Source of the DNA: Siphonodentalium dalli
Lineage: Eukaryota; Mollusca; Scaphopoda; Gadilida; Siphonodentaliidae
NCBI GenBank assembly: GCA_032622095.1
Contig: CP136061.1
Location: forward strand, 44,647,797 to 44,711,796
Length of the DNA: 64,000 nt
Direction of reading: 5' to 3'
The position numbers and the translations under genes are program-made. The notes beneath the pieces were generated by a model. The model worked only from the letters and a program-made list of their open reading frames with translations. It did not search any database and was not told the origin of the DNA. Positions 22,669-55,760 of the stretch are shown piece after piece. Position 1 is the first letter of the stretch. Every line of letters starts with the position of its first letter.

Positions 22669-22712
22669 AATACGCAGTGTACATTGAATTATAACACACT
22701 TTCCATCACTAA

Positions 22713-25190: not shown

Positions 25191-25191
25191 C

Positions 25192-26539: not shown

Positions 26540-26712
<173 letters not shown>

Positions 26713-26912
26713 TATCTATACCCTCTATCGCCCGAACAATTCGACTTGCCTCTGCACTAGCACTCGGTTGCCTCTTTTGTCTTCCTCTCTCCCTCCCTCT
26801 TTCTCTCGATCTCCCCCTCTTTGTCTCGATTTGCCATCCATATCTCTCGCCCCACTCTTGGTTGCATGAGCCTCTGTAATTCCTACATGCTTATGCACTC
26901 CCTCTCTACTAG

Positions 26913-27191
26913 ATCATGTCATGAATCTCTGACGGAAAAATTTATAATATTGAACAAAGAACGCAGGGAAATTATTTCTTTGTTAGTATCCTGTCCCTTA
27001 ATAAACTATTGCACAGTATATAGGGTTGGTCCCAGTTCGAGATTGCATGAGTTTTATGACTTTTGTGAGTATATATCGCAATAAACATTGAATTAGTTCC
27101 CGTGAGAAATTCCAGGAACATCAAAAAGTTCCCAGATTTTGAACTGATGATCTTTACGGGCGTAGCCTGAGCATTCGACCATTTCATCATG
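26913..27191. mobile_element. Dispersed MITE-like repeat, GGCTACGCCCGTA family (copy B)
   Basis: Allelic counterpart of 7,434-7,712, nearly identical. Confidence 0.45.
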
Positions 27192-28416: not shown

Positions 28417-29122
28417 AGTCATTCGTGTTTGTGGAATGTCGTAAATCACGAAATGAAGTACCGGCGGACAGCGTGTGAATCTACTTCAATCTAGCTGCTC
28501 CGACCACAAGTTACCAATAGAAACGGGACGGTGGACCAATACCAACCGGGATGATCGCACTTGCGTGTTATGTGATACAGGGTTAATTGGTGACGAATTT
28601 CACTACCTTCTCGTATGTAAAAAAAATGACCAACGTCCGGCGCAGATTGTTACCAATGTTAACTGGCCGACGCCCTAATACAATATTGATGAGTGATTTA
28701 CTTAACGACGACAATGTAACACATCTCCGCAAGTTGTGCGTATTTATTAAGATTGTAAATCGAGAAATGACCGAATAACTCAGCTAGACAATAAGTCGAA
28801 CAAGCAATGTCAAAATTTATGCAAGAACAGTACCGATATACGCATACACATAGTTATTGATAAATAATTATAAATAAGTATATGTAGGCATATACAATAA
28901 ATATATTTAGTTGTATATGCTTATATATATTTACAATATGCATATATATGTTATAGTATTATACATCTATGTAACGATGAAGGTTATGTAATATAATCCA
29001 TGTATACAACTTTTGTCAACCGGAAGCTCACATGTTTATGTACATATTGTATATATTTAAATTGTTATTATCTCCATACCTATGTATGTATAGGTTTATG
29101 AGAAATAAACTGATTGAAGAAA
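28417..29122 (+). mobile_element. LINE 3' end with frameshifted RT C-terminus (copy B)
   Basis: Allelic counterpart of 8,940-9,646, with the same frameshift near 28,620 and IETGRW where copy A has IEPGRW. The shared frameshift shows the decay predates the split of the two copies. Confidence 0.72.
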
Positions 29123-29727
29123 CAGTTTGGCTTTGGATTGTTGACAATATATAAAGATGACTCACGTTAGATAATGTCATGAATATCTGCTCTGTCTATA
29201 ACGCTCGTAGAGATCATATTACGCCATCGGAACTTTTTTATGTCCCAACAAGGGTCGAAAGTCAAAAATCAGCATACGTGCCTGCAAATTTTTTCCGACT
29301 CCCCCCTGGTTTATAACACCATATAGTAACCAGGTTTTGTACTTGGTGAATATGATCTCTATACGGGTGGAGTTGGCCAGTCTGGAGTAAACTACATATA
29401 CCCACATAAAAAATATAGTATGTTTACAAAAAGCATGGATCTATAGACTCACATTAATACAGATCAACGCGATTTGACACCATAAAACTACAATCTATAC
29501 CAGAAAATAATTAGAACGTGACAATGAGTCCATTAATATTGGATGTTCTGATGTTCAGAAATCGACTTTCAAAAGGTGAACATTTAATATGGTTTTTGAC
29601 TTTGTATTGGTCTATTGCAAAAATTCCAATGAATTGATCTTATAAAGGGCGCCCGTGGTTCTATCGTTCAAAGTGATAATATAGAGCGTTATCGATTATG
29701 AGCATTTATATGATAATTTTCGACGTA

Positions 29728-29968
29728 TTAAAAGGGAACTGTAAACTAAATCCGGCCATGTATGGGCCCATTTCATTTTATACTCAACAGCATATATATG
29801 CCACAAATGAATTAATTTGAGCCATGAATTAGTACAAAATAAACTCTTGTGCGATATTAATGATGCAAACGACATGGTAATTATAATGAAAATGAATTTA
29901 TGACTGGAGAATTTATAACAGAAGATGGTCCCATAAATGGCCGGATTTAGTGTACAGTACCCTTTTAA
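29728..29968. mobile_element. TTAA-flanked MITE (T2/Kolobok-like), copy B
   Basis: Allelic counterpart of 10,251-10,491; same ends, same length. Confidence 0.75.
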
Positions 29969-30678
29969 ATTGTGGATTGCCTTTGTGAAATGAATGGTGG
30001 TGATTGGACGTATATATTCGTGTTCTTTTTCCTGATTTCTGAAGTATTTAGTGACACATCGGACATATAGCTATAATACTTATATAATAGCCTCCAGTCA
30101 CACTTTTGAAGGTTTTGTTTACATGGCAGTATATTATATACCTTTTTTATTTTATGGTGGGTTTTGGGAGAGCATTGTGCATTCCGCCGAGAGGAGCGGT
30201 GGACCATTGTTCCAACACCACTGCGTGTGTAAGAGCTTCGTTGGTGGAAATAATCTTTTGTGTTTGAAACAAACTCGATCCGAATCTATTATCAGTTGGC
30301 GCCACCCCGCTTACCCAATGCCAGTGAAATTGTGGTGATGCTCAGAAGCGTTTGTCTATGAAATACGCCATGTCACTAACTCGCGGCCATATTGGATCTA
30401 TTGGATATGTAAGCGTCTCAGCCAACGCCGTGTATATATACATTTTGCATACATTTTTCACCTTCTCTTTGTTAAAAAGGCATAAAGCTGTAGTTTTTTC
30501 ATGAGTTATAAAAGATCTTCAACTCGTTATGTTGGGATGAAACTCGTTTGATACATTTGATCCACAACTTATCTACGACTGGTGAATCAAATTTATCAAA
30601 CTCGTTTCATAAAATCTTATATCAATGGAGATCATATCTATATATAGCGGTTTCAAGCCTCTGTAAAATGCATGGGTC

Positions 30679-30802
30679 AACCGGGTATGAGAGTCGGAGT
30701 ATTAACGATGGTAACCGGGTATGAGAGTCGGAGTATTAACGATGGTAACCGGGTATGAGAGTCGGAGTATTAACGATGGTATTAACGGGGTATTAACGAT
30801 GG
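30679..30802. repeat. 34-bp minisatellite, about 3 copies (copy B)
   Basis: Allelic to 12,045-12,669 but with a 34-bp unit that includes AACCGGG, and only the GTCGGAG variant. The unit structure, not only the copy number, differs between the copies. Confidence 0.9.
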
Positions 30803-30996
30803 TAAAGTTATCTTGATTTCGTTTATTGCATACATTTGAAAACGCTAAACATCGCATTCAGCCAATACGTACACGATTTGATATCAATGTATACTTAATC
30901 GGGGTTCACGATTAGATAGCGATTGATATTAAATCGCAATAACACGTGACACGCGAGGTTATGCTTGAGTATGGTTATTGACGAAATAACGGAGTT

Positions 30997-31255
30997 GTTT
31001 GAAGAAGTGCTTTTAACTAATTTTAAAGAGCGTTTTTGTGGACGTTTGAAGAAGTGCTTTTAACTAATTTTAAAGAGCGTTTTTGTGGACGTTTGAAGAA
31101 GTGCTTTTAACTAATTTTAAAGAGCGTTTTTGTGGACGTTTGAAGAAGTGCTTTTAACTAATTTTAAAGAGCGTTTTTGTGGACGTTTGAAGAAGTGCTT
31201 TTAACTAATTTTAAAGAGCGTTTTTGTGGACGTTTGAAGAAGTGCTTTTAAATTG
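30997..31255. repeat. 47-bp minisatellite, about 5.5 copies (copy B)
   Basis: Allelic to 12,864-13,170, one unit shorter. Confidence 0.95.
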
Positions 31256-34095
31256 CAAAAGTCCATGTAGTATTTTATGTACTTACCGAGCCATATTCAT
31301 CTCCAGAACGTGAAAACAGAGGGCAATTACCAGGTTTATTTTTAGACGCTCTTCAAATATATAAATATCTAATTTCTCTCCAAGGACAATTTTAACATAC
31401 GTTTTCTTTGAAATATATTGACTGTAAAGTACTGAAAAAAATAAAAGATCGTAAAATATGCATACAAATATTCTCAGGTTCATGGAAAGTATGACGCAGA
31501 GCATCCGCTGTATGGAACTGTGTCACAATGGTGTCCCACTGACGGATAACCCGCTCATATCAATACTAAATCTCAGTCACATGTGCCATATGTTTCTTGA
31601 ACAAAAGACACCAACCAGACGAAAGCTATTAGCGACACAGGTGTACAATTTACTCATTTACAACAAACACAAATGTTAGCAATTTACAGAAACATATGGA
31701 CATTCACTGCCGGGATAGAGATTTCCTTGTGGGATATTTTTGAAATAAAATCGTCGTTTATAACTATTGGTACCGTCCTTCACTGTATAATCGTTTGTCT
31801 GGTTCTTCGACCACACATCTTGTTCTCTGAATTAAGAGCTGCATCTGATTCTACAATTCCACATATTATAATTCGAGAGTCTCGCACAGAAAGGGGCTAA
31901 ATCAATACCGACAATGAAGGGGGGTTACCCCTTTCTGCATGCGACCATTATATACTCTATGTATCCAATGAATTTGCGTCTATGGCACATGCAACTGACA
32001 AATTTGCGTGGCATTATTGATATCACTCTTTATTATTTTCAGCTTACCAGAAAAAAGGAACATTTTTAAATATTTGCAATTATAATAATTCGTATGACAC
32101 AGACATCGCGAAAAAAAAAAACACAATCATTACTGAGAACGCTCTTTATTATCTACTGCTTGGGGGGAGATTGGACGCCCTTTACCGGAGAACAGCATTG
32201 GAATGTTTGCTCGCTTGACACAAACACAAACGAGTTAAATCCACTCGGCGGTTTGCGCTCCAAAATACACCTAATTATATTCGCTTTTGAAATTTTCCCG
32301 GTATCGAAATAAGATCGATAATTACTTAAACTACATTTCTGCGCGCATTATTTGTCCCAGAAAGACGTATTGAAGTAATAAAAAATACAACATTGAAGTG
32401 TTTCGGTCCCAAACAAACAACAGCAATGTGAACGGCATTGAACAGAAAAGGGCGCTCCGCGTTAGTCTATTCCTGATATGGAAGAAATAAAGAGCGTTTC
32501 TTTTACTTCTATCCGAAAAATTTAAAAACAACAACTGGAAAATGGTTGTGACGATGGCAAATAAATTTCATAGCATATGAAGATGGTATATATCAATATG
32601 TCTTGTGTTTATCAACCTATTGTGGACAGGCGAATATATTACACATGTACAGAATGATTCATATTCACTGGTGATAACTGTTCAGATTGTAACTTCAACC
32701 TATGGCTGTGTGTTGAACTTATTATTATAATATTTCGTAAGGGAGCAACTCGTTAATGAATATTTAGCAAAGAAGTTGTGCTAATTGCAGGTGATATGCG
32801 GAAGAAAGCTGTGAAAAATACATTGTATTGTGGCAACAGTAAAATTGTCAGTCATATATATCTGCAATCTGGTCAGCATAATTTCTGTCGGTAACATATA
32901 TATAGAGTATATATAGCCGCCAGATAATGTGAAAACCACAAACAAAGGGCGTTTAGAGGCTGCTTATATAAACTGGTTCAGAATCCGGATCCGGGTTCGC
33001 AAAAAAATATTCATTTCTGACGAATGCGTGTCTGAATCCGGAATCCGGGGTTTATCTATAGACCGGATACGAGGGTGATGGCTGTGCATGCATTCATTCA
33101 GGTCATCGTTTGTTTGAGAGAAGCTCCTCGCCATTATGTTGGGGTCTACCATCCGTTTAGTCCACACACGTTGACACCAGGCACATGTATACAACGTAAT
33201 CCCAGCCACTGGATACATTATTATTATTGTCGCATGCCGCACGTGGAATACAATAAGCAGGAACTGCTTCAAGTTGTTACGTACACGACGTCAAGGATGC
33301 ACTTCGGGTGATGCCCATATAAACTTTACCGGGTTTCCGATCAGACTTAGATTACAATAAGGTAGCTACAATATCAATGGTATTGTCGCAATCACAGATT
33401 AACCCTTTCATTACGGGAGCTGCGCTGGCGCATCATTAAAGACCCTGAGAAGTTTGGAGTTTGGGATGATACACGGGGAGATTTGAAAGGGCTGACAGCC
33501 CTCTCCTACAACCCACTTTTGGATGCTATGATTCCGCTGAAGAGCGTTTATGGGGTTTGTGAGTTTGTAAGTAGATTACTATCTGCCCATGCACAGTAGA
33601 TGTTTGCCTACTGTGCATGGGGTGGGATGCTACCGCAGCAAGAAGCAAAGACCCCCTCCATTCCGAACCTGGACCGGCTATTAAGACTTACCTTGATTCT
33701 AAGAGTTTTGTGTGTTGATATATATATTATTTTGAGTTATGGATGGTTGTAATATCGTGTTCTATTTTGTGCTTGTATATGGACTCCAGTTGCCTTAGTA
33801 TGTTGTATTCCGGGCTTGTACTACGGGCTCAACGCTAGGAAAAGGGTGCAATGCCAGCCGGTTGACAAAAGGTCGGTCGGGGCTCCTCAACTCTTGATGG
33901 TGCAATGCCCGCCTTTCACACATGTGCGAGTGGCAGAACCCGTTGACCTGGTTGTGTAATGCGGTCGCGGACTGAGGAAGCATCTGAGGCCAGACTGGGT
34001 CGCTTAGTGTGTTTTCGGAAGGTTTGGAGTGTTACGTTGTGTTTCCGATTTATCTGTCCCACCCGTCCTCCCATAGTCACGGGGGTGTGACTAAA

Positions 34096-34975
34096 CACCG
34101 CCCGGACCAGTCCGGACCGCCCCTGTGGAGTATAGGGGTGATTTTAGTGGCAATATATGTGCATGGGGTGTCATGGAAACCCACTCACGCACGGACAGGG
34201 GTCACAGAAGTGTCGCTATTAACCCTCAAAATGCCGGCATCGGCGAATATGTTCGCCGCGAACGAAGCTAACAGCCCGGACCGCCCCTGTTGCGTCTAGG
34301 GGTGATTTTAGTGGCCATATCTGTGTGTGGGTGTCGTCGAAACACACATACACACGGAGGGTGGTCACGGCCCAACAGAAGTACCTATATTAACCCCTAA
34401 ACTTGCCAGATTCAGCCAGAATTACAAATGTGTGCCCCCAATAAAAAAAAAACTCACCGACCCCCGTATCGCCCTCGTACAGCTAATAAATCCTTACATA
34501 TATGTTGCGGAACTACCCTCGACTACACTCACGAAGAAACAAGGGCGAATCGCCGACTCAAGCCGGGCAATTAACCCCAAAAATGCCGCTGTCGCCGAAT
34601 ATGTTTACCGCTAACGAAGCTAACAGCCCGGACCAGCCCGGACCGTCCCTGTTACGTCTATAGGGGTGATTTTAGTGTCCATATCTGTGCACTGGTGTCA
34701 ATGAAACCCACATACGCACGGAGGGTGGTCACGGTCAAACAGAAGTGCCGATATTAACCCCATAACTTGTTAGATTCAGCCAGAATTATAAAATTGGGGC
34801 CTTCAATAAAAAAAAACTTACCCGCGTAATGCCCTCGTATTTCAAATAAATTCTTACATATATATTGCGGAACTACCCTCGACTACACTCACGAAGAAAC
34901 AAAATGGCGGCATTTTGGGGGGTAATTTCCAGGCTGTCTAGTCACACCCGGTCACCGGCGCGGGTGAAAGCGTGT
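34096..34975 (+). repeat. Composite GC-rich dispersed repeat (copy B)
   Basis: Counterpart of 16,031-16,860, with small indels such as an extra GGACCAGCCC unit. Confidence 0.75.
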
Positions 34976-35054
34976 ATTTGCAAATTTGTATATATATAGG
35001 CAGTTGTTAGTGGTTTTGAGAGAGATAATTATTCGACGACTTATACTACGACTA

Positions 35055-35125
35055 CGACAAGCGTTCTCTTATATATGCGAGTCGACCATAAGTTGCCTCG
35101 CATATATACGAGAATTCATTTGCCT
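35055..35125. mobile_element. Uninterrupted hairpin (copy B) hit by the MITE in copy A
   Basis: CTCTTATATATGCGAGTCGA ... CCTCGCATATATACGAG forms a stem like those in the piggyBac-like MITE at 35,498. In copy A the same hairpin is split into 16,955-16,967 and 17,626-17,665. Confidence 0.75.
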
Positions 35126-35497
35126 GACAATTTTGTTATCATTTGTTATAAATGTTTCTTACATTCTTCAACAATTTTTATCATGTTTTATAATTTTTTC
35201 TTTTCTTACATTCTGTAACAATTTTCATCATTTTTTATATTTGTTTCTTACATTCAAGTAACAATTTTTATCATTTTGTCTTATATTCATTAACAATTTT
35301 ATTATTTAAAAAAAATTCTTACATTCTTTAACAATTGTTTTCGCAAAAAATCAGGAGGTTGTGTCTATTTAACCATTTATTTTTGCCACATGCAGCATTG
35401 TTATTATCAAGCAGCTGGATAACGTATACATTTTCATTCCTGACCAATTTTTAGTATTCAACGTCATTGTTACTATACAATGTGGTCTCCATTTTCC

Positions 35498-35897
35498 TTA
35501 ACCCTTTACCCAACAGAACGGCCCTGTGCCAATGCATTCTCTTATATATGCGAGTCGACCATAGGTCGCCTCGCATATATAAGAGAATGCATTGGCTTAA
35601 CACATTAACAATTATAAAATTGTTAAAAAATGTAAGAACAAATGGTAAAAAGTGTTAAAAAAAGATTTTTTTTAGGCCAATGCATTCTCTTATATATGCG
35701 AGGCGACCTATGGTCGACTCGCATATATAAGAGAATGCATTGGCACAGGGCATAACTGTAACTATCACAATGTGGTCAAGGAGCCGGTTCCAATGATATC
35801 CATATTTGTATGGTTCTATTGAGACAGACCGAAGATATTTTAGGCTGTTGAAGCTTTATTTGGCCGGTTTTGGCCGGTTTGTTGGGTAAAGGGTTAA
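35498..35897. mobile_element. piggyBac-like MITE with two nested hairpins (copy B)
   Basis: Allelic counterpart of 18,053-18,452; nearly identical, TTAA on both sides. Confidence 0.88.
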
Positions 35898-37755
35898 GCC
35901 ATGGATTTTATGTTTTGCCTAATATTCCTGACATTTTTAGATATGTCTGGAATTTTATTTTGGGAAGAATGTGATATATGTGATTAATGTGACATATTTT
36001 AAGAACAACAAATTAGTTTGAAAATTATTAGCCCTGTTTCTAATATTTTTGACATGCCAAATCCTTGAAACGTCATTGTTTCCAGCCACCAACGCTTCTG
36101 CATGCTGTATTTGTAATTTTCAAGCGAATCAATTGAAACATTGGGCCGAGATGAGTTCTAGGTCATAAGTACACAACCAATTGCCAGCTGACCACCACAT
36201 CTTTAGCAAGTGGCCATTTTAGTGGAACAGACTACATAACAATATTTGTTTCCATTGGCCTGAACCATTGTGAATTCTTTAATTTCCATATTAATATATG
36301 GGGGATGATGTTATATTGTGAAGCGAAATGTTAACTCAACATTGTTGCACAAATGATGCTCGCTACAGTACATGTATAGAGCCAATGCTATAACCTATAT
36401 GGCGGTTTGCTTTGCGCGTTTGTCTCGAGGTGAGCTGATTTATAACAGTCTGAACATGGGTTCAACATGCGAGACGGAACGAGACTTCTGTTCTCAGAGC
36501 AGTACACTGCACTTTCTCCAAAATTGAGTATTGCAACCAATCGATTTGTGGCACTGGTGTATACCATTATTTTTTACCATATTCCCCATGTAAACGTGTG
36601 CGCGGAATCACATTAGGGTTAATTATTTTGTATTTCCAAATGTATATATGTATAATAAACATTAGCAAAGGGATTGGAGGACAAGTGTGACCCACTGTAT
36701 AATCTTTTCCCCGAGTCACAGTTAAGACCCCCGTCATCACAAGGGATTGGTTATATAATTAATTTTCGTATATATTTATAGTTCTTCTTTGAAGCCTCGT
36801 CGGTTATACAACAACCATTCTCTTTCTGGCATGTGTGTCGCAAACCAGAAGCTAGCGTTTTCCATTTCCTTTAATCCCCGGGGTTACAATTGTTCAATAG
36901 AGTCTAGACGGATTTGATCGGTGAAAAACGCCAGACAAGGCCTTTGTCTGGAAAGGTCGACATTAATTTTAATCGAATGAGAATCCAGTAGATTACAGAA
37001 TGACTTTTCGTATCACTGGGTTTTTTACTATAGAATTGTCAGCATCGAGTGTCCGTCTGATCAGGTAGTGCGGCAGCTAATGTCAAACAGGAGTGGCAAA
37101 CTCATTGAATGCATATATGACGTTGGAAATACAGAGTCATGCCAACAGGGATGTATGTAGCAAGTGGGTCTTCGATATATATACGTGTCCTGATTCCATA
37201 TTTGCACCCCATTTGGGTCGGAACTTTCAACTGGTACCTAAGGTCTCCAACTATTATAGAAATAGTTTCAACCAAACCCCCCCCCCCCACCCCGCCCACA
37301 TAAACACAGTATGGTTGGAATGTTCCAACTGATAGCAAGTTCAATCCAAACATATTACACCTTTGGTATGAAAACAACAAATTTCGCACCGTACACCGGT
37401 TATAAAATCAAACTGTTGGAACATGTTCAACCTATTTTTTTTTTTGCTTAGATTGCGCCAGGCGGGATTTTCCAACTGTTGAAGATTTTGACCAAAGATA
37501 AGGGGTGAGACACACATCAAACCACCCCTGTCGCAACGTCCCTGAATGTCCGTTTTACAGAGGCGTGGTTATGTATATAGTCAAAGCATGAAGGCATAAA
37601 CGGTCGAAGACTGCAGTCTGAATATTTACTGTCATTGGTTATTCATTGTTTTCGCCGGATTATAACGAAACGAACCCGTGTCTGATTAGCGGGACATCAC
37701 GCAGATCACGTACCTGCATGTGTGGAATAAGGCATTGAGAGTTCACAGGGTCGAC

Positions 37756-38303
37756 TTAAAGGGATACTGTACTCAAGTGTTATTGTTGGTTTCTATAGTC
37801 TCTGAGACGTAGAATAAGGTAACCAGATTTCCATTATTTGAATGTCTGTTGAGTTCGAAGTAATGTTACGGATGGCAGATTAGGCGACTAATATTTGGAC
37901 AGTTTTCAAGCAAATGTATCAAATAAATGTTATTTTATATGCATACTAGTCCCATATACTCATTTAAGTTATTGTATAGTCAATAATCAGTGAGTGGCTT
38001 GAGTTTACGCCCCGTATCAACATAATTTTTTTAACGATCATGGTGCCACGCGTTGCCCAATCCACTATCCGTGAATTAATTTTGATTACGTCTTGTACAC
38101 GGAATTTCGTAATTTAATTCATGGCTCCAGCCATAAATTCAATTTATATCAAATTAGTAACTTTAATTTTAAGATAAAATATTTACCTGAACGTTTAAAG
38201 AATACATCTTCGACTCAAATTACTTAGTTTTCTATATATTATCGATATTAGATCGTTGTTATCACTGGGAATTTATTGAAAATGGCATACAGTACCCCTT
38301 TAA
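37756..38303. mobile_element. TTAA-flanked MITE (T2/Kolobok-like), copy B
   Basis: Allelic counterpart of 21,187-21,721, slightly longer because of a small insertion near 38,022. Confidence 0.72.
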
Positions 38304-38636
38304 TTATTGGTGTCTTAGTATCTATCATCTGAACGCCATCTGTGTCTGTCCATTTTAAACGGAAAAAACACCACATCTTGGGCTCATTAACCTCGTGAAT
38401 AAACATTTCCCACATTCCGAAAGCGTGGCCGTAAATGAATAACTTGTAAAAAAAATTATCCTAACGATACTCCAAATATATGCAATTCAATTTGTCATAT
38501 ATTATCCGCAGATTATTCTCGGCACGCGATGAGCATCTCGTATATAATTAGTTAATAATAACCAATGAATGTATGCATGTATAGATGAGACGACCCTTTG
38601 TACAATCATACAGCTCTCTGTAGTTATATATTATAT

Positions 38637-38862
38637 CATACTATAATACGTAGTGTACATTGAATTATAACACACTTTCCATCACTATAATACGCAGTGT
38701 ACATTGAATTATAACACACTTTCCATCACTATAATACGCAGTGTACATTGAATTATAACACACTTTCCATCACTATAATACGCAGTGTACATTGAATTAT
38801 AACACACTTTCCATCACTATAATACGCAGTGTACATTGAATTATAACACACTTTCCATCACT
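38637..38862. repeat. 44-bp tandem repeat, five copies (copy B)
   Basis: Unit ATAATACGCAGTGTACATTG plus AATTATAACACACTTTCCATCACT. Copy A has a single unit at 22,669-22,712, next to its extra element. Confidence 0.93.
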
Positions 38863-39409
38863 AAAAGGCTCTGGTTATAATTGGAGCCTGTTGTTGGTGG
38901 AAAGAGTATAATAATTCACTCGGTGAGCTCGTCGTATTTGTAAAGCCCGTCTCCACGAGTGAATTATTTCATTATTATTTTTATTTATTATTAGTTTATT
39001 CTGATCGTCAAGTTGAGACATTACAGAGATGTATGGATATAATATACAATATATTTCAGTGCAGGTATACATGTATATATTATATATGGCATAATAATAG
39101 AAGATAGAAAGGTTGGACGGTATTCGGTTGTTTCAGTATATATGCCACGCGGGTGGTAATAAGCCTCGGGTGGACCTGAATATTTCTAGGACCTTCTTAA
39201 TAAACACTGATAGATCACGTAATCATCGAAACCAATTGATTACTCTCTATGTACTAAATGACTGGGATTCCGTTGAATACATGTACACCACGTCATACTA
39301 CATAGACTGGCAGCTTGGAGGACTAGGTCCTGAAACTAGGACGAAACTCCGCTCACCAATGCATGTAGAATATATTAAATGCAAGTTTGTCTTAGTACTG
39401 GTTGGAAAG

Positions 39410-39931
39410 TTAAAGATACGGGCGGCGTTGGCGGTGGGTATGCTGTTATAATATTCACCTTCGCCAAAAACCGCCATAAACAGAAAGAATAGTAAAATAT
39501 AGACATACCTTGTTCTTATACCAATCAGAAATATGGCATAAACAGTTTGTTATTTTTTTTCCTTTGTTATGTAAAACAAAGCAAAAAACGTTACGTTACC
39601 ATGGCTTTTGTTTATATCCGGATATGGTAAACATAAAGAGCGTTATGTGTTACTGTTTTCCTGATATGGAAATAATAAAGAGCGTTTATATCATGTGTGT
39701 GTGATTAACCAATAGAATTGCGCTGTGTTATGTAAACAGAAGCACAACATCTGTAACACGAGCAGGCTCTTGTTTACGTACACCATATACGTCTTGACGA
39801 CAATATACTATTTACGCGCTGATTATGTTTGGCATGTGAACACAACTATATATATTTTTAATATTCCTTCTGTTGATGGCGATTTGAACAACTATGGATA
39901 TTTCTGCAACGAACGCCGCCCGTCCCTTTAA
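39410..39931. mobile_element. TTAA-flanked palindromic MITE, GGGCGGCGTT family (copy B)
   Basis: Allelic counterpart of 23,247-23,768. Confidence 0.75.
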
Positions 39932-41329
39932 CTAAATAATAATAAAAAATGTCAACATTTTAAGGCTTAAATTTCCATCTGCTGTTCATTCGGCATTCGG
40001 AGGTGTTGAACATTTTGACTAACGCACAGACGTGATCCCCCCCCCCCCTCGTCGTGCGTCCCCGATTAACATCTGCCGCACAGGGCGTTATGACATCTAA
40101 CACACTCGGTCACATTACTCCAAACTCAAATTAGTATACGGATCGTGACTTGTCGTGATTGTTCAAAGAGGGAGAGTTTCAACACGCGCGCGTGACAAGA
40201 CAAGGCCCGTCTCGACTAACCTCCCTCCCACCCATTCACATGTGACTTTTTCTCACACAAACCAGTCTGTTCTATATATTCACTCCATTGATAGCTAGGT
40301 CCGCACGAACTAACTGTTCTCTTTATTGGCGCTGTATATACAAGTAAACACTAGATCCGCGAGCATTATTAAGTCACCTTGGTCTCCGACCACAACTATT
40401 CAAAACTATTCACGCCTACAAGTTCTAGTGCCACGTATAGTCACGATGTCAGTGCAGGCTTCAAAAGGTACTAAAGAAATTTCACTCATTCCTAATGGCT
40501 TGTATTGTTTTGTGTCATTTATGGTAAAGAATACATACTGCATGATATAGACAATAGTGAATGCAATTAGTTCCTAATGTATATAAAAGGCACACTCTAT
40601 GTGTGGGCGCTGTCTAGACTCTTGTCTTGGTGAATGTTTAAATACTAAGACTTTTTTTGTTTCGAGGTTTATGTCATGTTCACATGAAGCTGCAAGAAAA
40701 TATATCTGCAAGAACATATCATACACAAATTTACCCTGATATTTTATTGCAGCAAAGATTACACCCGTGTGAACGTGGCTGTTTAGATCGCGATGATTGA
40801 ACTCAATCAGACCAGTATTAGTCGTGCTGGTTGAAGTCACTTGTTTCGGGCAAACAATATATAGACCATATTGGCAATTCATTGCATTATGAAATTTCCA
40901 ACTGTTGATTTTTTTTACCGAAGTTGGGTGGTGTGAAAAACCCCATCCCTGTCGCCATGTTGCTTCACTCATGTATAAAGTTTATGATATAATTTAATAG
41001 TACATGCATATATGGGGTGGCAAAAGTGTTTATGTTTTTTTTTCTTTTTTCTTTTTTTTTAAATAGGATGATCACACCCCATCTACCACATATGAAGTTT
41101 TATAGAGTTGGGGATTTTGTTAGGTTTATGGGCCTGTGACGTATAGCCCTTGTCTGGCTACCAGACACACATGGCTGTGGCGCCATGGGGTTTGGTGTGT
41201 CTTGCCTCACCCCCAACTACGGTTAATTTGGTCAAATGTTAGAAATTTCATACCGGATACAATACTATTTGTAAATTTCACAACAACAGTTGGTTGAAAT
41301 TGTTCTCGTTGTTTGGTTTTCCAATCAGC

Positions 41330-43375
41330 AATGTATGTGGAATCAATGTATGTGGAATCAATGTATGTGGAATCAATGTATGTGGAATCAATGTATGTGG
41401 AATCAATGTATGTGGAATCAATGTATGTGGAATCAATGTATGTGGAATCAATGTATGTGGAATCAATGTATGTGGAATCAATGTATGTGGAATCAATGTA
41501 TGTGGAATCAATGTATGTGGAATCAATGTATGTGGAATCAATGTATGTGGAATCAATGTATGTGGAATCAATGTATGTGGAATCAATGTATGTGGAATCA
41601 ATGTATGTGGAATCAATGTATGTGGAATCAATGTATGTGGAATCAATGTATGTGGAATCAATGTATGTGGAATCAATGTATGTGGAATCAATGTATGTGG
41701 AATCAATGTATGTGGAATCAATGTATGTGGAATCAATGTATGTGGAATCAATGTATGTGGAATCAATGTATGTGGAATCAATGTATGTGGAATCAATGTA
41801 TGTGGAATCAATGTATGTGGAATCAATGTATGTGGAATCAATGTATGTGGAATCAATGTATGTGGAATCAATGTATGTGGAATCAATGTATGTGGAATCA
41901 ATGTATGTGGAATCAATGTATGTGGAATCAATGTATGTGGAATCAATGTATGTGGAATCAATGTATGTGGAATCAATGTATGTGGAATCAATGTATGTGG
42001 AATCAATGTATGTGGAATCAATGTATGTGGAATCAATTTATGTGGAATCAATGTATGTGGAATCAATGTATGTGGAATCAATGTATGTGGAATCAATGTA
42101 TGTGGAATCAATGTATGTGGAATCAATGTATGTGGAATCAATGTATGTGGAATCATTGTATGTGGAATCAATGTATGTGGAATCATTGTATGTGGAATCA
42201 TTGTATGTGGAATCAATGTATGTGGAATCATTGTATGTGGAATCAATGTATGTGGAATCAATGTATGTGGAATCAATGTATGTGGAATCAATGTATGTGG
42301 AATCAATGTATGTGGAATCAATGTATGTGGAATCAATGTATGTGGAATCAATGTATGTGGAATCATTGTATGTGGAATCAATGTATGTGGAATCATTGTA
42401 TGTGGAATCAATGTATGTGGAATCAATGTATGTGGAATCAATGTATGTGGAATCAATGTATGTGGAATCAATGTATGTGGAATCATTGTATGTGGAATCA
42501 ATGTATGTGGAATCAATGTATGTGGAATCAATGTATGTGGAATCAATGTATGTGGAATCATTGTATGTGGAATCATTGTATGTGGAATCAATGTATGTGG
42601 AATCATTGTATGTGGAATCAATGTATGTGGAATCATTGTATGTGGAATCATTGTATGTGGAATCAATGTATGTGGAATCATTGTATGTGGAATCAATGTA
42701 TGTGGAATCAATGTATGTGGAATCAATGTATGTGGAATCATTGTATGTGGAATCAATGTATGTGGAATCATTGTATGTGGAATCATTGTATGTGGAATCA
42801 ATGTATGTGGAATCATTGTATGTGGAATCAATGTATGTGGAATCATTGTATGTGGAATCATTGTATGTGGAATCAATGTATGTGGAATCAATGTATGTGG
42901 AATCAATGTATGTGGAATCAATGTATGTGGAATCAATGTATGTGGAATCAATGTATGTGGAATCATTGTATGTGGAATCAATGTATGTGGAATCAATGTA
43001 TGTGGAATCATTGTATGTGGAATCAATGTATGTGGAATCAATGTATGTGGAATCAATGTATGTGGAATCATTGTATGTGGAATCAATGTATGTGGAATCA
43101 TTGTATGTGGAATCAATGTATGTGGAATCAATGTATGTGGAATCAATGTATGTGGAATCATTGTATGTGGAATCAATGTATGTGGAATCATTGTATGTGG
43201 AATCATTGTATGTGGAATCAATGTATGTGAAATCATTGTATGTGGAATCAATGTATGTGGAATCATTGTATGTGGAATCAATGTATGTGGAATCAATGTA
43301 TGTGGAATCAATGTATGTGGAATCAATGTATGTGGAATCAATGTATGTGGAATCATTGTATGTGGAATCATTGTT
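41330..43375. repeat. 15-bp satellite, about 136 copies (copy B)
   Basis: The first about 55 units are almost uniform (one G-to-T change at about 42,037). After 42,150, A and T variants alternate irregularly to the end. The 15-bp period keeps three plus-strand frames and at least two minus-strand frames open for hundreds of codons; these ORFs are artefacts. The array lies inside a decayed repeat with CCAACAGTTG words on both sides. Confidence 0.97.
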
Positions 43376-48330: not shown

Positions 48331-50034
48331 CACACCCCAACAGAGACTATTTATTGACGCCCCTGCATCTCTTTCTGTCATTTTCACACCGATTTTAGTT
48401 TTATTGTTTGTTTTTGTGAAATAATCGTTGTTGATGTCGTCCAACATTTTATTACTCTATATCTGTTGCGATTCCGAGATACTATTTCAGAGTGAACAAG
48501 ACCGTGTTAGACTGGCTCCCATAACCCAGTACTCCAATGCTATTTAACTATATCAATGCTTACGATCACAAAAATAAGCTATAGATTTGCAGATTTCGGT
48601 TATGGTGACCCCAGACTCAGTTCTATGCGTAATTAAATGATCAATAAGTTTAATTTGCATATTTGTACCCGATTATGTTCTTTTCAGGTGTTAGCATGTC
48701 CACAAATGGCCTTATCTAGACAAACTATACCAGACTGAGACGCTATTTGCTAGACAGCTAGGCTCTTGATCCAAACACACACACTGAAACAGTCACCCCC
48801 GGCGCCATTCAGATGACATATTTTCTAAGGCGTTTTCTGAATGAGACCTGTTTCTTGAATCGATGCCCACCCATCCATTCCTTTCCCGCCCATCTCAGAT
48901 TCAAACACCGTGATTGAGATGTCAAACACTGTTAAAGCTGATATGTAAATGCGACAACATTTGAATGAATAGGCCATGTATACAAAATAAGTATAATCCC
49001 ATATTCGACAAGTGGTTTCATATGTTAACTCCCATGTCCATTTGCTTTCTATTAAATTTGCTGTATTATTCACAACAAAGATATATCATATACGAGCGCA
49101 ATACACAATTTCAACACAATGAGCTCCATGACAGCCCGTCTCTTTGATCTTAGGTTGTGACATAATGAAGTATGTGCGTTCTGCTTTATGGGTAGAATTT
49201 TCTCACACGGCCGTAGGTCCATTCACATGCCCTTCCACTCGGTCTTAGTAGGTCAGTAGTGTTATGTAAACACTTCCAGGCAAATTAAAAACGAAACCAG
49301 TCAAAACATGTTAGGGGCTATCCAGTATAGGTTACGGATTACAGGCCTGGCTCATCTAATTGCTTTCAGCTATATAATAATTATTTGTAGAGGCATATGC
49401 GATGGTGCAGCTTTAGGTCTTGGACGCGGGTCCCCTGGTGCAATAACCCCACTATGACTATATTATATAGATAATGAATGGCTTGGAGTTGACTATGCCA
49501 AAATAGTGGTCCTCGAGGAGGAATAGTCCACGAGCCGCAGGCAAGATATTTATTATTTATTATATTATATTGAACATTGGTGCCAATTCTCACACAATTT
49601 CTGTGTCTGATTTTGTCACATTTTTATTTACCTTGAATTTTGGAAATCGGTCTCAGATTTTACAATTTACGGCAATCGTTTGACGATGGCAGGGGAGCAT
49701 AATTATGTTATTAGTTACATCTAACAGCATCTCTTCATGATTCATGTATTTATTTCTATAAATACGTCATTAGCAAATACAATTTGGCGAAATTTTATAA
49801 GTTAACTTGCTTATCTTAAACGGAAAAGTATGTTATAAATAACGTCCACTGGCATTACAAAATTAGGACTGGCCGCTTGCCAACTAAACGGACAAACTAT
49901 TAAATATATTGGCTAGCTATGGTCGGACATTTGTAAGATCATTACAATTCACCAATAAATCTAATGATATACCGATATTGCAACAAGTATCGTACAAGGT
50001 TTAGTTTAAGATTGGCCGTATCTTCAGGCGGCAC
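48331..50034. other. No recognisable gene
   Basis: About 1.7 kb AT-rich. Only short ORFs without motifs; no tandem or long inverted repeats seen. Confidence 0.5.
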
Positions 50035-50660
50035 CCGAACCAGCCCGGACCAGCCCGGACCAGCCCGGGCCAGCCCGGACCAGCCCGGACCCCCCATATG
50101 GACTATATGAGTGATTTTAAGGGCAATATAAGTGCAGGGGTGTCATGGAAACCCACTCAGTGTCGCTATTAACCCTCAAAATGCCGGCATCGGCGAAAAT
50201 GTTCGCCGCGAAATGAAGCTAACAGCCCGGACCGCCCCTGCTGCGTCCAGGTGTGATTTTAGTATCCATATCTGTGCGAGGGTGTTAATGAAACCCAAAT
50301 ACGTGCGGACAGTGGTCAAGGTCAAACGGAAGTGCCGTTTATTAACCCCTAAACTTCCCAGATTCATCTAGAATTACAAAATTGCGCCCCAATAAACAAA
50401 CTCACAGCCCGGACCCCCTTAATGTCTTCGTACTTCTAATAACTCCTTACATATGTGTTGTGGAACTACCCTCGACTACACTCACGAAGATACAAGGGCG
50501 AGTCGCCCACAAATGCCTGGCAATTAACCCCCAAAATGCCGCCATCGCCGATTATGTTTACCGATAACGACGCTGACAGCCCGGACCAGCCCGGACCATC
50601 CCGGTCCAGCCCGGACCCCCCATATGGACTATATGAGTGATTTTAAGGGCAATATAAGTG
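50035..50660 (+). repeat. Composite GC-rich dispersed repeat, second locus
   Basis: Opens with about six units of the 10-mer AGCCCGGACC, then the same block series as 16,031-16,860, then a second CCCGGACC cluster at about 50,577-50,618. The 3' copy is interrupted after GGCAATATAAGTG by the palindromic element starting at 50,661; the intact order in the first unit continues AGGGGTGTCATGG. Confidence 0.75.
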
Positions 50661-52148
50661 CATGCATAATAAAGGCGTCATTCAACCTGACATTGTCATA
50701 TTTTGAAGATAGTAGCAACCCAGGCTGACCAAATTGGAAATTTATCACCTTTTGTACCAAAAACATGAAATTTTGTCATATAATCATTCTCGTTTCAATG
50801 ATTTCAGAATAATAAACAGACAATTTCTCAAAAATATTTCAGTGTAGATCAAAGGTTAAGGTCTTACCATTTTTGGACATGTATACTCTAATCAAAACGT
50901 ACAATATCTAGGAAACATTCTTAACCGTATTTTAGAAATTTTGGATTATGTTACCCCTCACCCCAAAAATCATGAAATATTGTTTTTGTGATAAACATCC
51001 GATAGAACATGGATGAGAATCTATAAAGGACACTATTTGATCACATTTCTAAATACTGCAATGGCAATTACATACACAATGACCAAAGTTGAAATATAAC
51101 ATCTTTTTCGACAAAACATATGGAATTTTGTAAGAAAATCCTCTTCATTTCAAATATTTCGGTCCAATAAATGGTCATTTACTCATAGGATATTTGCGAT
51201 AGTTCACAATGTTCGGTCTTATATGTTTTGGACATATATACTGAAAACGATGAATACATTGGATGTGTTTAATATGTAACAACGTTTCAGAAAACTTGGT
51301 TTATGTTACCCCTCACCCCAAACATCACGAAAATGTGACTTGTTGTAAGGATTCAATAAATCTTTGGTTAAATCTTATAAAGTGAGTTTGTCGATCGCCA
51401 TTCGTCATATATTATAATGTAACAATCTCATTGTCAGTATACTGTTGAAATTAACAATTGTATGCCTAATAAAAATTTATTTGATCATTTCAAATATGTT
51501 CAACCAATAGAATGGCAATATGCAATAATATACAATATGCGGTCTTAAAAGTTTCGAAAATGAACATCGAATATATATACAACACATATAAGGGTATATA
51601 CATGTAATGTTTTGGTGAAATACAATAAAAGTAAAAGAATCTATAATACCATTAATGGATATATTTGACCCAATATCATTGACTTATGTAATCTAGCATT
51701 CAAGAGGGGTGTATATATAGATATGCATTTCAGGTCACAACTATAAATTGCAGACTGATAATACCAGCCGATAGATAGCAACTCATAGATTGTCATGTTA
51801 TAATCACCGCTGCCTGTGTTTATACGTTGAACACAATTACATCTACATAACTCTGTGTATGGTAAATCAGCGTTTACACATTTGCATCTGTTACAAGTTT
51901 GTGATTTGCAACAACACTTAATGAGTTCTGAGCACACAGCTGCAGCTTGTCATGACAAGTGTACCACAATCCTACCTGGTAGGCAGCTCGTTTCATATGT
52001 CCCACACTACATATATGACAGTAACACTTCTTAGTCTGTGGAGTAGAAACTTCATTAGTGACTGGGCGTAATCATTAAAAGTAGATACTATATCGCAGGT
52101 ACAATCATATCCACAAGAACGCCTCCATCAAATATCTTGCACTGAACA
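50661..52148 (-). repeat. Left, internally deleted arm of the palindrome
   Basis: The reverse complement aligns with 52,480-55,320. The first deletion joins GTGTGGGA to CATATGAAA and removes what is about 52,631-53,417 in the right arm. The second joins GTCATGACA to AGCTGCAGC and removes about 84 bp (53,467-53,550). Confidence 0.72.
51797..51940 (-). pseudogene. CXC-type cysteine-rich region, left-arm copy
   Basis: The minus strand reads CSELIKCCCKSQTCNRCKC followed by NADLPYTELCRCNC. This C-x-C, C-x4-C-x2-C-x-C, C-x-C spacing recalls one half of Tesmin/TSO1-like CXC (CRC) DNA-binding domains. It is about 90% identical to the right-arm copy at 53,560-53,690, but here LPYTELC is uninterrupted and one Cys is changed to Tyr. 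It lacks the preceding PLWTTLPEA segment because of the 84-bp deletion. It is a fragment without a gene around it. Confidence 0.6.
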
Positions 52149-52240
52149 TTTTTTAGGTGGGTCCGATATATCTCCAATTGCTTCCCGGATACATCCCAGC
52201 AAATCAGATTGTGTCCCCTTGAATTTACCTCCCGTTGATA

Positions 52241-52479
52241 CTAGTAAGGCGGGGGAAATAGCCGACTCTCATGAGAGAAAAACACGTCTGGTTCGGGGAG
52301 TTCTAGCCATCTCGTTATTGTTGATGAGCTCTCTGTTAAACCTACCAACCCTCCATTTCCTTTCAATTTGATGTTCTCCTGTTCCTGCACTTGATCGTTT
52401 GGAATAGCGGAGAAGCGTTTTCGGGTTTTTTGAACTGCCCAAATGTTGTTCGAACACACTATTACAAGAAATAAAATAT
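52241..52479 (-). pseudogene. Upstream block of the nuclease/CXC protein, in the loop
   Basis: The minus strand reads KTRKRFSAIPNDQVQEQEN followed by IKLKGNGGLVGLTESSSTITRW. From memory this matches a conserved block ('FSxIPxDQAxEQxN ... KGxGGxVGLTExxxAxRRW') in uncharacterised multi-copy proteins of marine invertebrates, upstream of their nuclease-like region. Here it lies on the opposite strand from the nuclease block at 52,624, so the ancestral order has been broken by an inversion around the loop. The surrounding frame is open from 52,576 but only this block looks conserved. A search is needed to confirm family membership. Confidence 0.5.
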
Positions 52480-52623
52480 TGGAAGTACGTGCAAGATATT
52501 TGATGGAGGCGTTCTTGTGCATATAATTGTGCCTGCGATAGGATCTACATGTACTTTTAATGATTAAAGTCACCAATGAAGTTTCTACTCTACAAACTAA
52601 GAAGTGTTAATGTCATGTGTGTT

Positions 52624-53225
52624 GTGTGGGATAGGTATTTTTGAAGTCAGCACAAAAGGCAGCACTAATGAGAATCGTGGTATAGGTCTTGGACGAAAAG
52701 TTGGTGGCCAAACTAAGATTCCAAAAAAATGGAACGACTTCCTCCGTAATTCTGACAATAAGCTTGAAATTGTTGTATTCCTGACAAGTAATGCATCAGA
52801 ACATGATGATAAAGTGTTAAACATGACAGAATGTTCGTCAACTCTCAAAATAGCAAATTCTTCCTAGTAAATCTTGAGAAACAGGAGAAAGCTGATATTA
52901 GAATTGTGCTGCACATTATCCATGCGCTTTCTTGTGGGCTGACGACCATCTGTGTTTGGATTGTTGACACATATGTCCTGGTAATGGTCATCGGTCTGTT
53001 TTCAAAGTTTACGGATGCTAACAGTGGTGGTGACACATGTGTTTCTCTAGGAACAGGCAAAACTAAAACATTGTACCATGACAACAGCACATTTTCCGCT
53101 CTGGGCGATGACAATTGTTATCACTACCCAATTTTCATTCGATATCTGGTTTTGATACCACTTTGTTCTTCCATATAAAGGGCAGAAAAAGTTTCTGGAT
53201 AGCATGGAAATATTATTCCGTTATC
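52624..53225 (+). pseudogene. FEN/PIN-like nuclease-type region, frameshifted
   Basis: Three reading frames must be followed. VWDRYF (52,624) is followed by STKGSTNENRGIGLGRKVGG and IPKKWNDFLR (frame from 52,643). Then QEKADIRIVLHIIHAL and CVWIVDTYVLVMVIGLF, then SLGTGKTKTLYH (frame from 52,831). Finally GFDTTLFFHIKGRKSFWIAW from about 53,148. The spaced acidic pattern resembles 'EEADTRI ... VRTVDTDV ... FTGCDTTSxFxGKGKKSAW' of a widespread invertebrate family, which I read as FEN/PIN-like. In this copy EEADT is EKADI, DTDV is DTYV and GCDTTS is GFDTTL, so it is broken by both frameshifts and loss of likely metal-binding residues. Family and fold assignment are from memory. Confidence 0.58.
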
Positions 53226-53455
53226 ACAGATAAATGTACATTTCTTCTATAGGCGAATCAACCTTTTATTCAACTAGATTCGTCCTCATATATTTTCAAA
53301 GAACTCGAACGTTTCATTACCATTAATTATAATAAAGGTTGTCAAAAGTTGCTGATAACGAGGCATATGAAGAGAATTCTCCAAAACTTGTCGCTCAAAA
53401 GGGGACCTAATACAGCATATGAAATGAGCCATATACCAGGCAGGATTGTGGTACA

Positions 53456-53695
53456 CTTGTCATGACATAACAATTCCAATACATGGCCCGCATGACTGGG
53501 AATGGACAGCTGAAGATCATGGATGTAAACCATTGTGGACTACATTACCAGAAGCTGCAGCTGTGTGTTCAGAACTCATCAAGTGTTGTTGCAAATCCCA
53601 AACTTGTAACAGGTGCAAATGTGCAATAGCTGATTTACCATGCACATAATTATGCAGTTGTAACAGTAATTGTAATATTAAGAATGCCTAAAATA
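53456..53695 (+). pseudogene. Tesmin/TSO1-like CXC region, right-arm copy
   Basis: Reads HGPHDWEWTAEDHGCKPLWT then TLPEAAAVCSELIKCCCKS, QTCNRCKCAIADLPCT, an in-frame TAA (53,647-53,649), then LCSCNSNC. The left arm has Glu (TELC) where this copy has the stop, so the stop is a point mutation. The cysteine spacing is that of CXC/CRC domains, which bind DNA in tesmin, LIN54 and TSO1. In related multi-copy proteins, as I recall them, this module follows the nuclease-like region, as here. About 220 bp of decayed linker separates the two. Confidence 0.6.
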
Positions 53696-55539
53696 TTTGT
53701 TCAATGTATCAACATGGTCACCGGTGATTATAACATGACAATATATGAGTTGCTATATATCCGCTGGTATGATCAGACTGTGCACATTATAGTTATACAG
53801 GTACAACATAACAAACGTGAATTTAAGAACAGAGTTTATCACATAATTTGGCCATAAAAGCAGTTTCATAATTATCGGTAATAGACACGTTTAATGTCAG
53901 CGCGTGCGATGACGTCACGGCGTTCTTCAAATAACTTGCGATCGCTCTAGTTTATGATTGTTGTTTTCGATGAATATTTCGCGTTGCTTCGGTTTTATTT
54001 GATCATGTGATAAAAGGTATCTCACACTCGTCCTATTTTATACGTAATTTATCAACCTCGTCCTCTAAATTCTATTTGAGCCTCGGTAAACCTCGGCTCA
54101 AATCGAATTTAGTGAACTCGGTTATTAAATTCCGTATAAAATAGAAACTCATGTGAGATCCTCTATATAAACAAAGATAGACCATCTTTATGTTATGTGT
54201 ATTATTGATAGACAAATTAAAGTTGTGATCTGAACTACATGTCTATATATACCCCTCCTGTATGCTACATTTGTAGATTATATAAGTCAACACCTTCAAA
54301 TTATTTATGGTATAATATATTTTTAGAATTTTATTCTATTTCACCAAGACATGACATGTATACACCTTTAAATGTGTTGTATTCGACAGTCATTTTCAAA
54401 ACTTTCAAGGCCCCATGTGGTATACGATCTTGGGAAATGTTTGAGAAATTGCCCATATAATGGTTGAAAATATTTGAAATGATGGTTATTTTACCATAAA
54501 ATATAGCTGTTATTAGGCATACAATTGTAAATTTAAACAGTATACTGTCAATGAGATTGTTACATAACAATATATGACTAATTGTCATCGACAAACTCAC
54601 TTTATAAGATTTAACCAAAGATTTATTGAATCTTTACAACCAAGTCACATTTTCGTGATTTTTGGGGTGAGGGGTAACATAAATCAAATTTTCTGAAACG
54701 TTGTTACATATTAACCACATAAAATGTATTCGTTGTTTTCAGTATATATGTCCAAAACATTTAAGACCAAACATTTTGAACTATCGCAAATATCCTATGA
54801 GTAAATGACCATTTATTGGACCAAAATATTTGAAATGACGAGGATTTGTTTACCAAATTGCATATTTTAGTCGAAAAAGTTGTAAATTTCAACTTTGGTC
54901 ATTGTGTGTGTAATTGCAATTACAGTATTTAGAAATGTGATCGAATAGTGTCCTTTATAGATTCTCATCCATGTTCTATCGGATGTTTATCACAAAAACA
55001 AAATTTCATGATTTTTGGGGTGAGGGGTAACATAATCCAAACTGTCTAAAATATGGTTACGAATTTGTCCTAGATGTTGTATATTTTGTTTGCAGTATAC
55101 ATTCTGAAATTTTTAAGATCTTAACCTTTGATCTACACTGAAACACTTTTGAGAAATTGTCTGTTTATTATTCCAAAATAATTGAAACGAGAATGATTTT
55201 ATGACAAAATTTCATGCTTTTGGTCCAAAAAGTGATAATTTTCAAATTTGGTCATCCTGGATTGCTAATATCTTCAAAATATGACAATGCCGGATGGAAT
55301 GACGCCTTTATTATACATGTGCCTTAAATTGTATACCAGTTGGAACGTCATGGTGAAATAATGATTGAATTTGGCCACAATCTTGGATTTATACTGGAAA
55401 CAAGGGTTAATATTGATCAGAAACCTGTTTCTAGTTCACTTTCTGAAAGAGCACACATAACTTGACATAATATAAAAAAAATGGCACTTTTGGCCAGTCC
55501 GTTCCAATATGACAAAATTTTGTCGCTAAGTCACTACAC

Positions 55540-55760
55540 TACTAACACAATATACTGACAAAACGTTAATAGTTTAATTCCGCCAATTTGCGACTTCAGT
55601 TATACTGAATTACTAAATTATTTTGCCACTTGTCAATAGATTGAGAGAAGGAATTCACCTTGACCAATATATTTACATTAATTAATGTAATTAATTAACG
55701 TGCGATTACGCTTTTTGTGCCCGCGTTATAGTATGGGAAAAACGTCTCCTGTTGATATTT
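55540..55760 (+). repeat. Dispersed repeat, GCGTTAATAGTTTAATTCCG family
   Basis: AACACAATATACTGACAAAA through GTTAATAGTTTAATTCCGCC, ATTGAGAGAAGGAATTCACC and TTAATTAACGTGCGATTACG recurs at 63,705-63,865 and partly again at 63,890-64,000. No coding or clear inverted ends. Confidence 0.7.

What the first reader, a model, noticed from the sequence alone, without database searches (positions are those of the whole stretch)
50661..55320. 4.7-kb palindromic element carrying a nuclease-like plus CXC DNA-binding protein
Long inverted arms, a decayed FEN/PIN-like region and a Tesmin/TSO1-like CXC region sit within one bounded unit that appears inserted into another repeat. I recall this protein family as multi-copy and uncharacterised in marine invertebrates. 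If the arms are the termini of a mobile unit, this may be an undescribed transposon type using a FEN-like nuclease and a CXC domain in place of a known transposase.
Basis: partly seen in the sequence, partly recalled or inferred. Interest (0 to 1): 0.78.

Follow-up and report, generated by a model that had tools for sequence, protein, structure and literature searches.

The report
Palindromic parasite of a nuclease-bearing transposon
The region is a damaged copy of a young, high-copy jumping element that is almost wholly palindromic and carries only broken pieces of the enzyme gene of a larger transposon family, so it probably moves by borrowing that family's enzyme rather than being a new kind of transposon itself.

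Summary
The palindrome is real, but its stated outer ends are wrong and the nuclease/CXC gene is not a substitute transposase. Other copies (39 scored, 96-99% alike) run about 210 bp further left and 220 bp further right, end in TAGTGTAGTGACTTAGCG...CGCTAAGTCACTACACTA (391 exact termini in the genome) and have exact 3-bp target duplications in 16 of 20 fetched copies. The window copy has lost its left end; its right end is 55541. None of 21 copies read has an ORF above 160 aa between the stated ends. The broken blocks (IPxDQ, nuclease-like, CXC) match the C-terminal part of a multi-copy gene; six frames of 862-1,534 aa contain, in order, a putative DDE region, IPxDQ, nuclease-like and CXC. The element shows no significant DDE match. 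Best reading: a non-autonomous fold-back derivative of an AcademX-like transposon, with both ends taken from the parent's 3' end. Similar 3'-ends-out inversions occur at other loci. No autonomous partner was found. The Academ, DDE, FEN and CXC labels rest on recall and motifs; no HMM confirmed them.

The parts
50661..55541 (.). whole remaining element; about 210 bp of the left terminus are missing
   Evidence: comparison with 20 fetched copies
50661..51656 (+). left arm, truncated at 50661
   Evidence: inverted repeats I1-I4, I7; 96-99% like the 39 other scored copies over about its first 1,090 bases
54303..55541 (-). right arm, complete to the terminus
   Evidence: inverted repeats; extension 55320-55541 shared with the 20 fetched copies, in L009 tandemly repeated and in L024 shortened
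55524..55541 (-). true terminus TAGTGTAGTGACTTAGCG
   Evidence: exact, the only match in the window with up to 3 mismatches, 0.03 expected; 194+197 exact matches in the genome, backwards control 0+0
55542..55544 (+). right half (CTA) of the presumed 3-bp target duplication; left half lost
   Evidence: by position, from the 3-bp duplications of other copies
50661..51725 (+). about three approximate direct repeats of about 355 bp in the left arm (mirrored at 352-356 bp in the right arm)
   Evidence: direct-repeat families D2, D4, D5, D7, D8
52304..52441 (-). IPxDQ/HEQNN-like coding block, in the unique centre
   Evidence: tblastn of a recalled family sequence, 50% identity over 46 aa, E 1.8e-11 against the window
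52885..53198 (+). nuclease-like block (EKADIR, DTYV, GFDTT), in two frames
   Evidence: tblastn of a recalled family sequence, two pieces, E 1.8e-10 against the window
53407..53667 (+). CXC-like block, right arm, with two in-frame stops
   Evidence: tblastn E 1.4e-20 against the window; stops:
51839..51949 (-). CXC-like block, left arm (inverted copy)
   Evidence: tblastn E 1e-7 against the window; inverted repeat I5 51837-51948 / 53552-53663, 89%
52143..52488 (.). spacer between the innermost inverted pair 52091-52142 / 52489-52540: the presumed fold-back loop
   Evidence: inverted repeat I10, 94%, 346 nt between the arms
53836..54165 (.). about 330-bp insertion relative to copy L018; holds a small hairpin (54033-54144)
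   Evidence: break in the alignment with L018; inverted repeat I12

Best explanation
A truncated copy of a non-autonomous, long-armed DNA transposon derived from an AcademX-like parent. Shown: many copies, fixed termini, 3-bp target duplications, near-complete palindrome, no intact gene in the copies read, coding remnants that match the C-terminal part of a larger multi-copy ORF family. Inferred: a parent copy broke inside its gene just upstream of the IPxDQ block; the broken strand folded back, leaving a loop of about 350 bp, and was copied out to the 3' terminus. That gave an inverted duplication in which both ends are the parent's 3' end. The left arm later lost the nuclease block. The product keeps two good termini and repeated subterminal sequence, so a transposase made by a relative moves it by cut-and-paste with 3-bp staggered insertion; one such copy then amplified recently.
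For: Copies: 737 first-look candidates; 40 scored, the window and 39 others at 96-99% over about 1,090 bases. Exact terminus 194+197 times, backwards control 0+0; of the first 100 listed sites, 32 form facing pairs under 20 kb, 20 of these 4.6-5.02 kb apart. Exact 3-bp duplication in 16 of 20 fetched copies; of the 19 parsed, 16 match at 3 bp, 1 at 2 bp, 0 at 4 or 5 bp; about 0.4 of 20 expected. One-kb left arms are 97.5% alike among copies, right arms 97.0%, left against right within a copy 88% (15 of 21 copies), so the palindrome is older than the burst. Parent architecture: 70 of 150 scored DDE-query hits have a scored nuclease-query hit downstream on the same strand within 6 kb (62 at 1.5-2.0 kb; about 0.01 expected within 2 kb), 14 with the same frame length, hence one frame; six frames (1534, 1533, 1533, 1133, 1029, 862 aa) hold all four blocks in order. 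A fetched 253-aa piece of the 1,534-aa frame reads ILDGAFIVQ, EEADTR, DTDVVV, GCDVVSFF. DDE-region queries give nothing significant in the window and 49 loci. AcademX makes 3-4 bp duplications and is described as encoding a nuclease (PMC10045372, passages).
Against: No autonomous copy with the same termini was found: in the extended query the element copies match only from residue 55-57 on, while hits spanning the whole query are 41-59% identical (150 of 1,712 candidates scored); only 4 sites have the terminus followed by C or G, which does not test partners with A or T there. Other listed copies have frames up to 247 aa; the one fetched has the same inverted arrangement, the rest were not read, so an intact copy is not excluded. 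Pfam and PDB found no match for the nuclease-like piece, and Pfam none for the recalled CXC and DDE segments. Weak 12-23-aa matches of the DDE-type queries to the element exist (E 0.02-0.03 in a 5-kb search). Four of 20 copies lack a parsed 3-bp duplication (L009, L024, L026, L027).
Confidence: 0.72

Rival explanations
1. The element belongs to another superfamily with 3-bp duplications (for example Zator, PIF/Harbinger or CACTA-like; the last two recalled) and merely captured a fragment of the nuclease/CXC gene as cargo, then duplicated it in inverse.
For: 3-bp duplications are not unique to AcademX (Zator also has 3 bp: PMC10045372); no autonomous partner with the same termini found.
Against: The CXC block sits at the inner end of both arms and the arms run from it to the terminus in one alignment block without a visible junction (L018: 23-1603 against 4831-3212), as expected if the arm is the 3' end of that gene's own element.
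Confidence: 0.17
2. An undescribed transposon type in which the FEN-like nuclease plus CXC protein is the whole transposase.
For: The remnants recognised in the element cover only IPxDQ, nuclease-like and CXC blocks.
Against: In relatives with long frames the same blocks share a frame with an upstream region, up to 1,534 aa; the gene is broken in the 21 copies read.
Confidence: 0.04
3. Assembly or tandem-duplication artefact, or a host gene family with inverted copies.
For: The window does hold an assembly-type duplication elsewhere (6125-25441 / 25542-41579 around an N gap).
Against: Same ends, same palindrome and different flanks with 3-bp duplications on several contigs.
Confidence: 0.02

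Closest known systems
AcademX lineage of the Academ superfamily (PMC10045372, passages; the AcademH paper PMC7165386 is not held and was not read)
   Same: 3-bp target duplications; the relatives' gene couples a putative DDE-type region with a nuclease-like domain.
   Different: This element has no intact gene in the copies read and is a near-complete palindrome; a C-terminal CXC block was not mentioned in the passages read; the parent genes were not compared with reference Academ sequences.
Galileo / Foldback-like elements (PMC3573991, passages)
   Same: [quoted passage not shown] arms extended by recruiting internal sequence; the longest arms occur in copies without the transposase ORF.
   Different: Galileo is a P-superfamily element with 7-bp duplications; here 3 bp, another gene, and arms that contain part of the coding region.
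MITE-like and other non-autonomous DNA transposons (recalled)
   Same: Moved in trans by a relative's transposase (inferred).
   Different: About 4.87 kb long, with about 1.6-kb arms and decayed coding blocks.

Membership tests
AcademX (Academ) | 3-4 bp target-site duplications | tested here: met
   3 bp exactly in 16 of 20 fetched copies; published value from PMC10045372
AcademX (Academ) | gene encodes a nuclease (XPG type, recalled) | tested here: inconclusive
   motif series ILDG / EEADTR / DTDV / GCDVVS in a long-frame relative, but no Pfam or PDB match
AcademX (Academ) | DDE transposase of the Academ lineage in the autonomous relative | tested here: inconclusive
   two recalled DDE-region queries hit at 33-76% identity, the second in the same frames as the nuclease block; that it is an Academ DDE domain is recalled, no reference sequence was compared
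AcademX (Academ) | the element itself encodes the transposase | tested here: not met
   no frame above 160 aa in the 21 copies read, no significant DDE match: at most a non-autonomous derivative
Foldback/Galileo-like structure | long terminal inverted repeats with internal repeats | tested here: met
   about 1.6-kb arms in L018 and L010, about 355-bp subterminal repeats
P superfamily (Galileo) | 7-bp target duplications | tested here: not met
   3 bp
CACTA/EnSpm | element begins 5'-CACTA (recalled) | tested here: not met
   element begins TAGTG and ends CACTA
Zator | Zator-type DDE transposase | not tested
   3-bp duplications would fit (PMC10045372); no Zator sequence was compared

The most novel reading that the evidence does not exclude
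In this genome the nuclease-bearing transposons repeatedly turn themselves into 3'-ends-out palindromes: breakage in the gene, fold-back and copying to the 3' terminus is a regular by-product of their transposition, perhaps linked to the structure-specific nuclease, and the double-3'-end products out-compete their parents. The window element would be one burst of such a cycle. Among 150 scored CXC hits there are 13 opposite-strand pairs within 10 kb with 3' ends outward (12 separate ones, 2.4-4.2 kb apart, and one that spans two neighbours) against 2 inward (one of them the gap between those neighbours) and 4 same-strand pairs; for the nuclease block 5 outward, 1 inward, 2 same-strand.
Probability: 0.2. 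Interest if true: 0.68.

Novelty: new variant of a known kind. Interest (0 to 1): 0.42.

Why it matters
It shows one reason why fragments of this nuclease/CXC protein are so abundant in this genome: they ride on transposons. It gives a young, high-copy example of an element made mostly from one end of its presumed parent. The repeated 3'-ends-out geometry makes a concrete question testable: whether a transposase that carries its own structure-specific nuclease generates palindromic parasites.

Tried and rejected
An apparent GTGC duplication at those ends (my first idea): rejected for the same reason. A longer open frame of 247 aa at C9:40164820 looked like a possible active copy; fetched, it has the same inverted arrangement. 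Viral-contig searches with window pieces, recalled family pieces and the L050 frame confirmed no relative (5 scans). Pfam with window frames, L049 frames, the recalled segments and the L050 frame gave no match at a curated cut-off; weak ones were NicO E 0.011, DUF4716 E 0.16 and tRNA_edit E 0.0093; none. PDB sequence searches: 0 matches; 3 (designed ankyrins, E 0.18 or more) and 7 (E 0.51 or more). Literature: 8 searches answered; in their listings I saw no paper on a CXC domain in such a transposon, which is a statement about those listings only. Papers seen as passages: PMC10045372, PMC10294476, PMC10799480, PMC9587614, PMC3573991; others only as search listings; Kojima 2020 (PMC7165386) not held.
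Full report
OBSERVATION. The inverted arms exist: 50661-51656 pairs with 54303-55319 in ungapped blocks of 84-92% complementarity, and shorter inverted matches continue inwards through the coding remnants to 52091-52142 / 52489-52540, which leave a 346-nt spacer. The arms hold direct repeats spaced about 355 bp. The nuclease-like and CXC-like blocks are there but broken; the CXC block occurs in both arms, and the IPxDQ block lies on the opposite strand from the nuclease block.

THE REAL UNIT. A search of the window's own genome (2,226,750,531 bases, 9 contigs) with 50661-52000 gave 737 first-look candidates; 40 were scored: the window itself and 39 others at 96-99% identity over about the first 1,090 bases. 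I fetched 20 of those 39 with flanks. In all 20 the stated end CATGCATAATAAAGGCG (one base different in L014 and L024) is internal. Shared sequence continues about 210 bp further left and about 220 bp further right (in L009 repeated in tandem, in L024 shorter), to TAGTGTAGTGACTTAGCG...CGCTAAGTCACTACACTA. Of 19 copies parsed, 16 have an exact 3-bp direct duplication directly outside these ends (16 match at 3 bp, 1 at 2 bp, 0 at 4 or 5 bp; about 0.4 of 20 expected by chance), 83% A/T. L024, L026 and L027 do not match; L009 could not be parsed. Twelve of the 19 parsed copies measure 4.77-4.91 kb, six are longer and one is shorter. The exact 18-base terminus occurs 194 times forward and 197 reverse, backwards control 0 and 0; among the first 100 listed sites there are 32 facing pairs under 20 kb, 20 of them 4.6-5.02 kb apart. 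In the window the right terminus is at 55524-55541; the left terminus is lost, and 50661 is a junction with another repeat, not an insertion boundary.

AGE AND STATE. One-kb left arms of different copies are 97.5% identical on average, right arms 97.0%, but left against right within one copy only 88% (15 of 21 copies). The palindrome therefore formed before a master copy amplified. Other listed copies have frames up to 247 aa around the IPxDQ block; the one of these that I fetched has the same inverted arrangement. The family is non-autonomous as far as read; an intact copy elsewhere is not excluded.

WHERE THE CODING PIECES COME FROM. I recalled a family of large animal proteins with these motifs and typed short segments of it as queries; the queries are from memory, the hits are computed. 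The IPxDQ, nuclease and CXC segments match the window (E 1.8e-11, 1.8e-10 and 1.4e-20) and the fetched copies listed (best 25 rows per query shown). DDE-region segments give nothing significant in the window or 49 loci, many of which are partial copies: no row at E 0.05, best E 0.61 over 23 aa for the first query and none at E 1 for the second; in a 5-kb search the best chance-level rows are E 0.02-0.03. In the whole genome the second DDE-region query scored 150 of 867 candidates (top hit 73% identity), the nuclease query 150 of 2,585, the CXC query 150 of 3,154. Of the 150 DDE hits, 70 have a nuclease hit downstream on the same strand within 6 kb, 62 of them at 1.5-2.0 kb (about 0.01 expected within 2 kb), and 14 have the same frame length, hence one frame of 694-1,534 aa. 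Sixty-five nuclease/CXC pairs are collinear within 3 kb, 55 of them 445-553 bp apart. The IPxDQ segment lies between DDE and nuclease in the same frames. Six frames contain all four blocks: C3:20746537 on (1,534 aa), C3:15310069 (1,533), C8:134656444 (1,533), C8:170185497 (1,133), C5:103506454 (1,029), C7:42955105 (862). A 761-base piece of the first was fetched; it reads through without a stop and shows ILDGAFIVQ, EEADTR, DTDVVV and GCDVVSFF, a series of acidic motifs that I recognise as FEN/XPG-like, although Pfam and PDB sequence searches found nothing.

MECHANISM. Shown: the element's two ends are similar arms that each include the gene's CXC end. Inferred: the parent element broke in its gene between the DDE and IPxDQ blocks, the strand folded back with a loop (the 346-nt spacer), and copying ran to the 3' terminus, so both ends are the parent's 3' end; the left arm then lost the nuclease block. 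Such an element needs a transposase from elsewhere. The 3-bp duplication fits AcademX, for which 3 or 4 bp and a nuclease are published (PMC10045372, passages); that the nuclease is of XPG type is recalled. Academ elements are reported as numerous in bivalves with a mean length of 5,565 bp (PMC10294476, passages), a size that would fit a gene of about 1,500 codons. Long, internally repeated arms that grow by recruiting internal sequence are known from Galileo (PMC3573991, passages).

RECURRENCE. Among the 150 scored CXC hits, 13 opposite-strand pairs within 10 kb face outward (12 separate ones; one spans two neighbours), 2 face inward (one is the gap between those neighbours) and 4 are on the same strand; for the nuclease block 5 outward, 1 inward, 2 same-strand. 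Seven DDE/nuclease pairs lie on opposite strands about 1.3-1.4 kb apart, several at the same loci. By eye, none of these positions is among the 150 and 150 places of the window family listed. So 3'-ends-out inversions occur at other members of the wider family too; how many independent times was not tested, and none of them was read.

WHAT FAILED. No autonomous copy with the same termini was found: in the extended query the element copies match only from residue 55-57 on at 91-96%, and hits spanning the whole query are 41-59% identical (150 of 1,712 candidates scored); only 4 sites have the terminus followed by C or G, which leaves partners with A or T there untested.

VERDICT. A real, young, mobile palindrome; ordinary in being a non-autonomous DNA transposon, unusual in being built mostly from one end of a presumed nuclease-bearing parent. 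The evidence is against a transposon that has replaced its transposase by a FEN nuclease and a CXC domain. Filing the parent under AcademX is likely but not proven.

Noticed in passing
6125-25441 and 25542-41579: Two stretches of 16-19 kb, 93-99% identical in collinear blocks, lie on either side of a 100-base N gap (25442-25541): probably unmerged overlapping contig ends or alleles, not a biological duplication.
   Followed up: partly
G000 C3:134645956, C3:227751578, C4:168999999, C4:245274236, C6:1015731, C7:22897051, C7:140225543, C8:103762339 and others: Other opposite-strand pairs of the CXC block with 3' ends outward, many 3.9-4.2 kb apart: possible further palindromic derivatives of the same transposon type; none was read.
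   Followed up: partly
53836-54165: About 330-bp insertion in the right arm relative to copy L018, holding a small hairpin (54033-54144); perhaps a nested short element.
   Followed up: no
50001-50660, 16025-16790, 34108-34902: A CAGCCCGGACC-containing repeat with an internal period of about 349-355 bp, close to the 355-bp spacing of the element's subterminal repeats; no sequence relation was tested.
   Followed up: no
12044-12671 and 41560-41700: Minisatellite arrays: 26-bp period at 12044-12671, 15-bp period near 41560.
   Followed up: no
G000 C3:209094193, C3:89589575, C2:50896063, C4:134329584, C7:59115308: A second subfamily (FDQAIYAKAQ-type query) with frames up to 1,616 aa and identical frame lengths (1,141 aa) on three contigs: apparently recently active relatives.
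   Followed up: no
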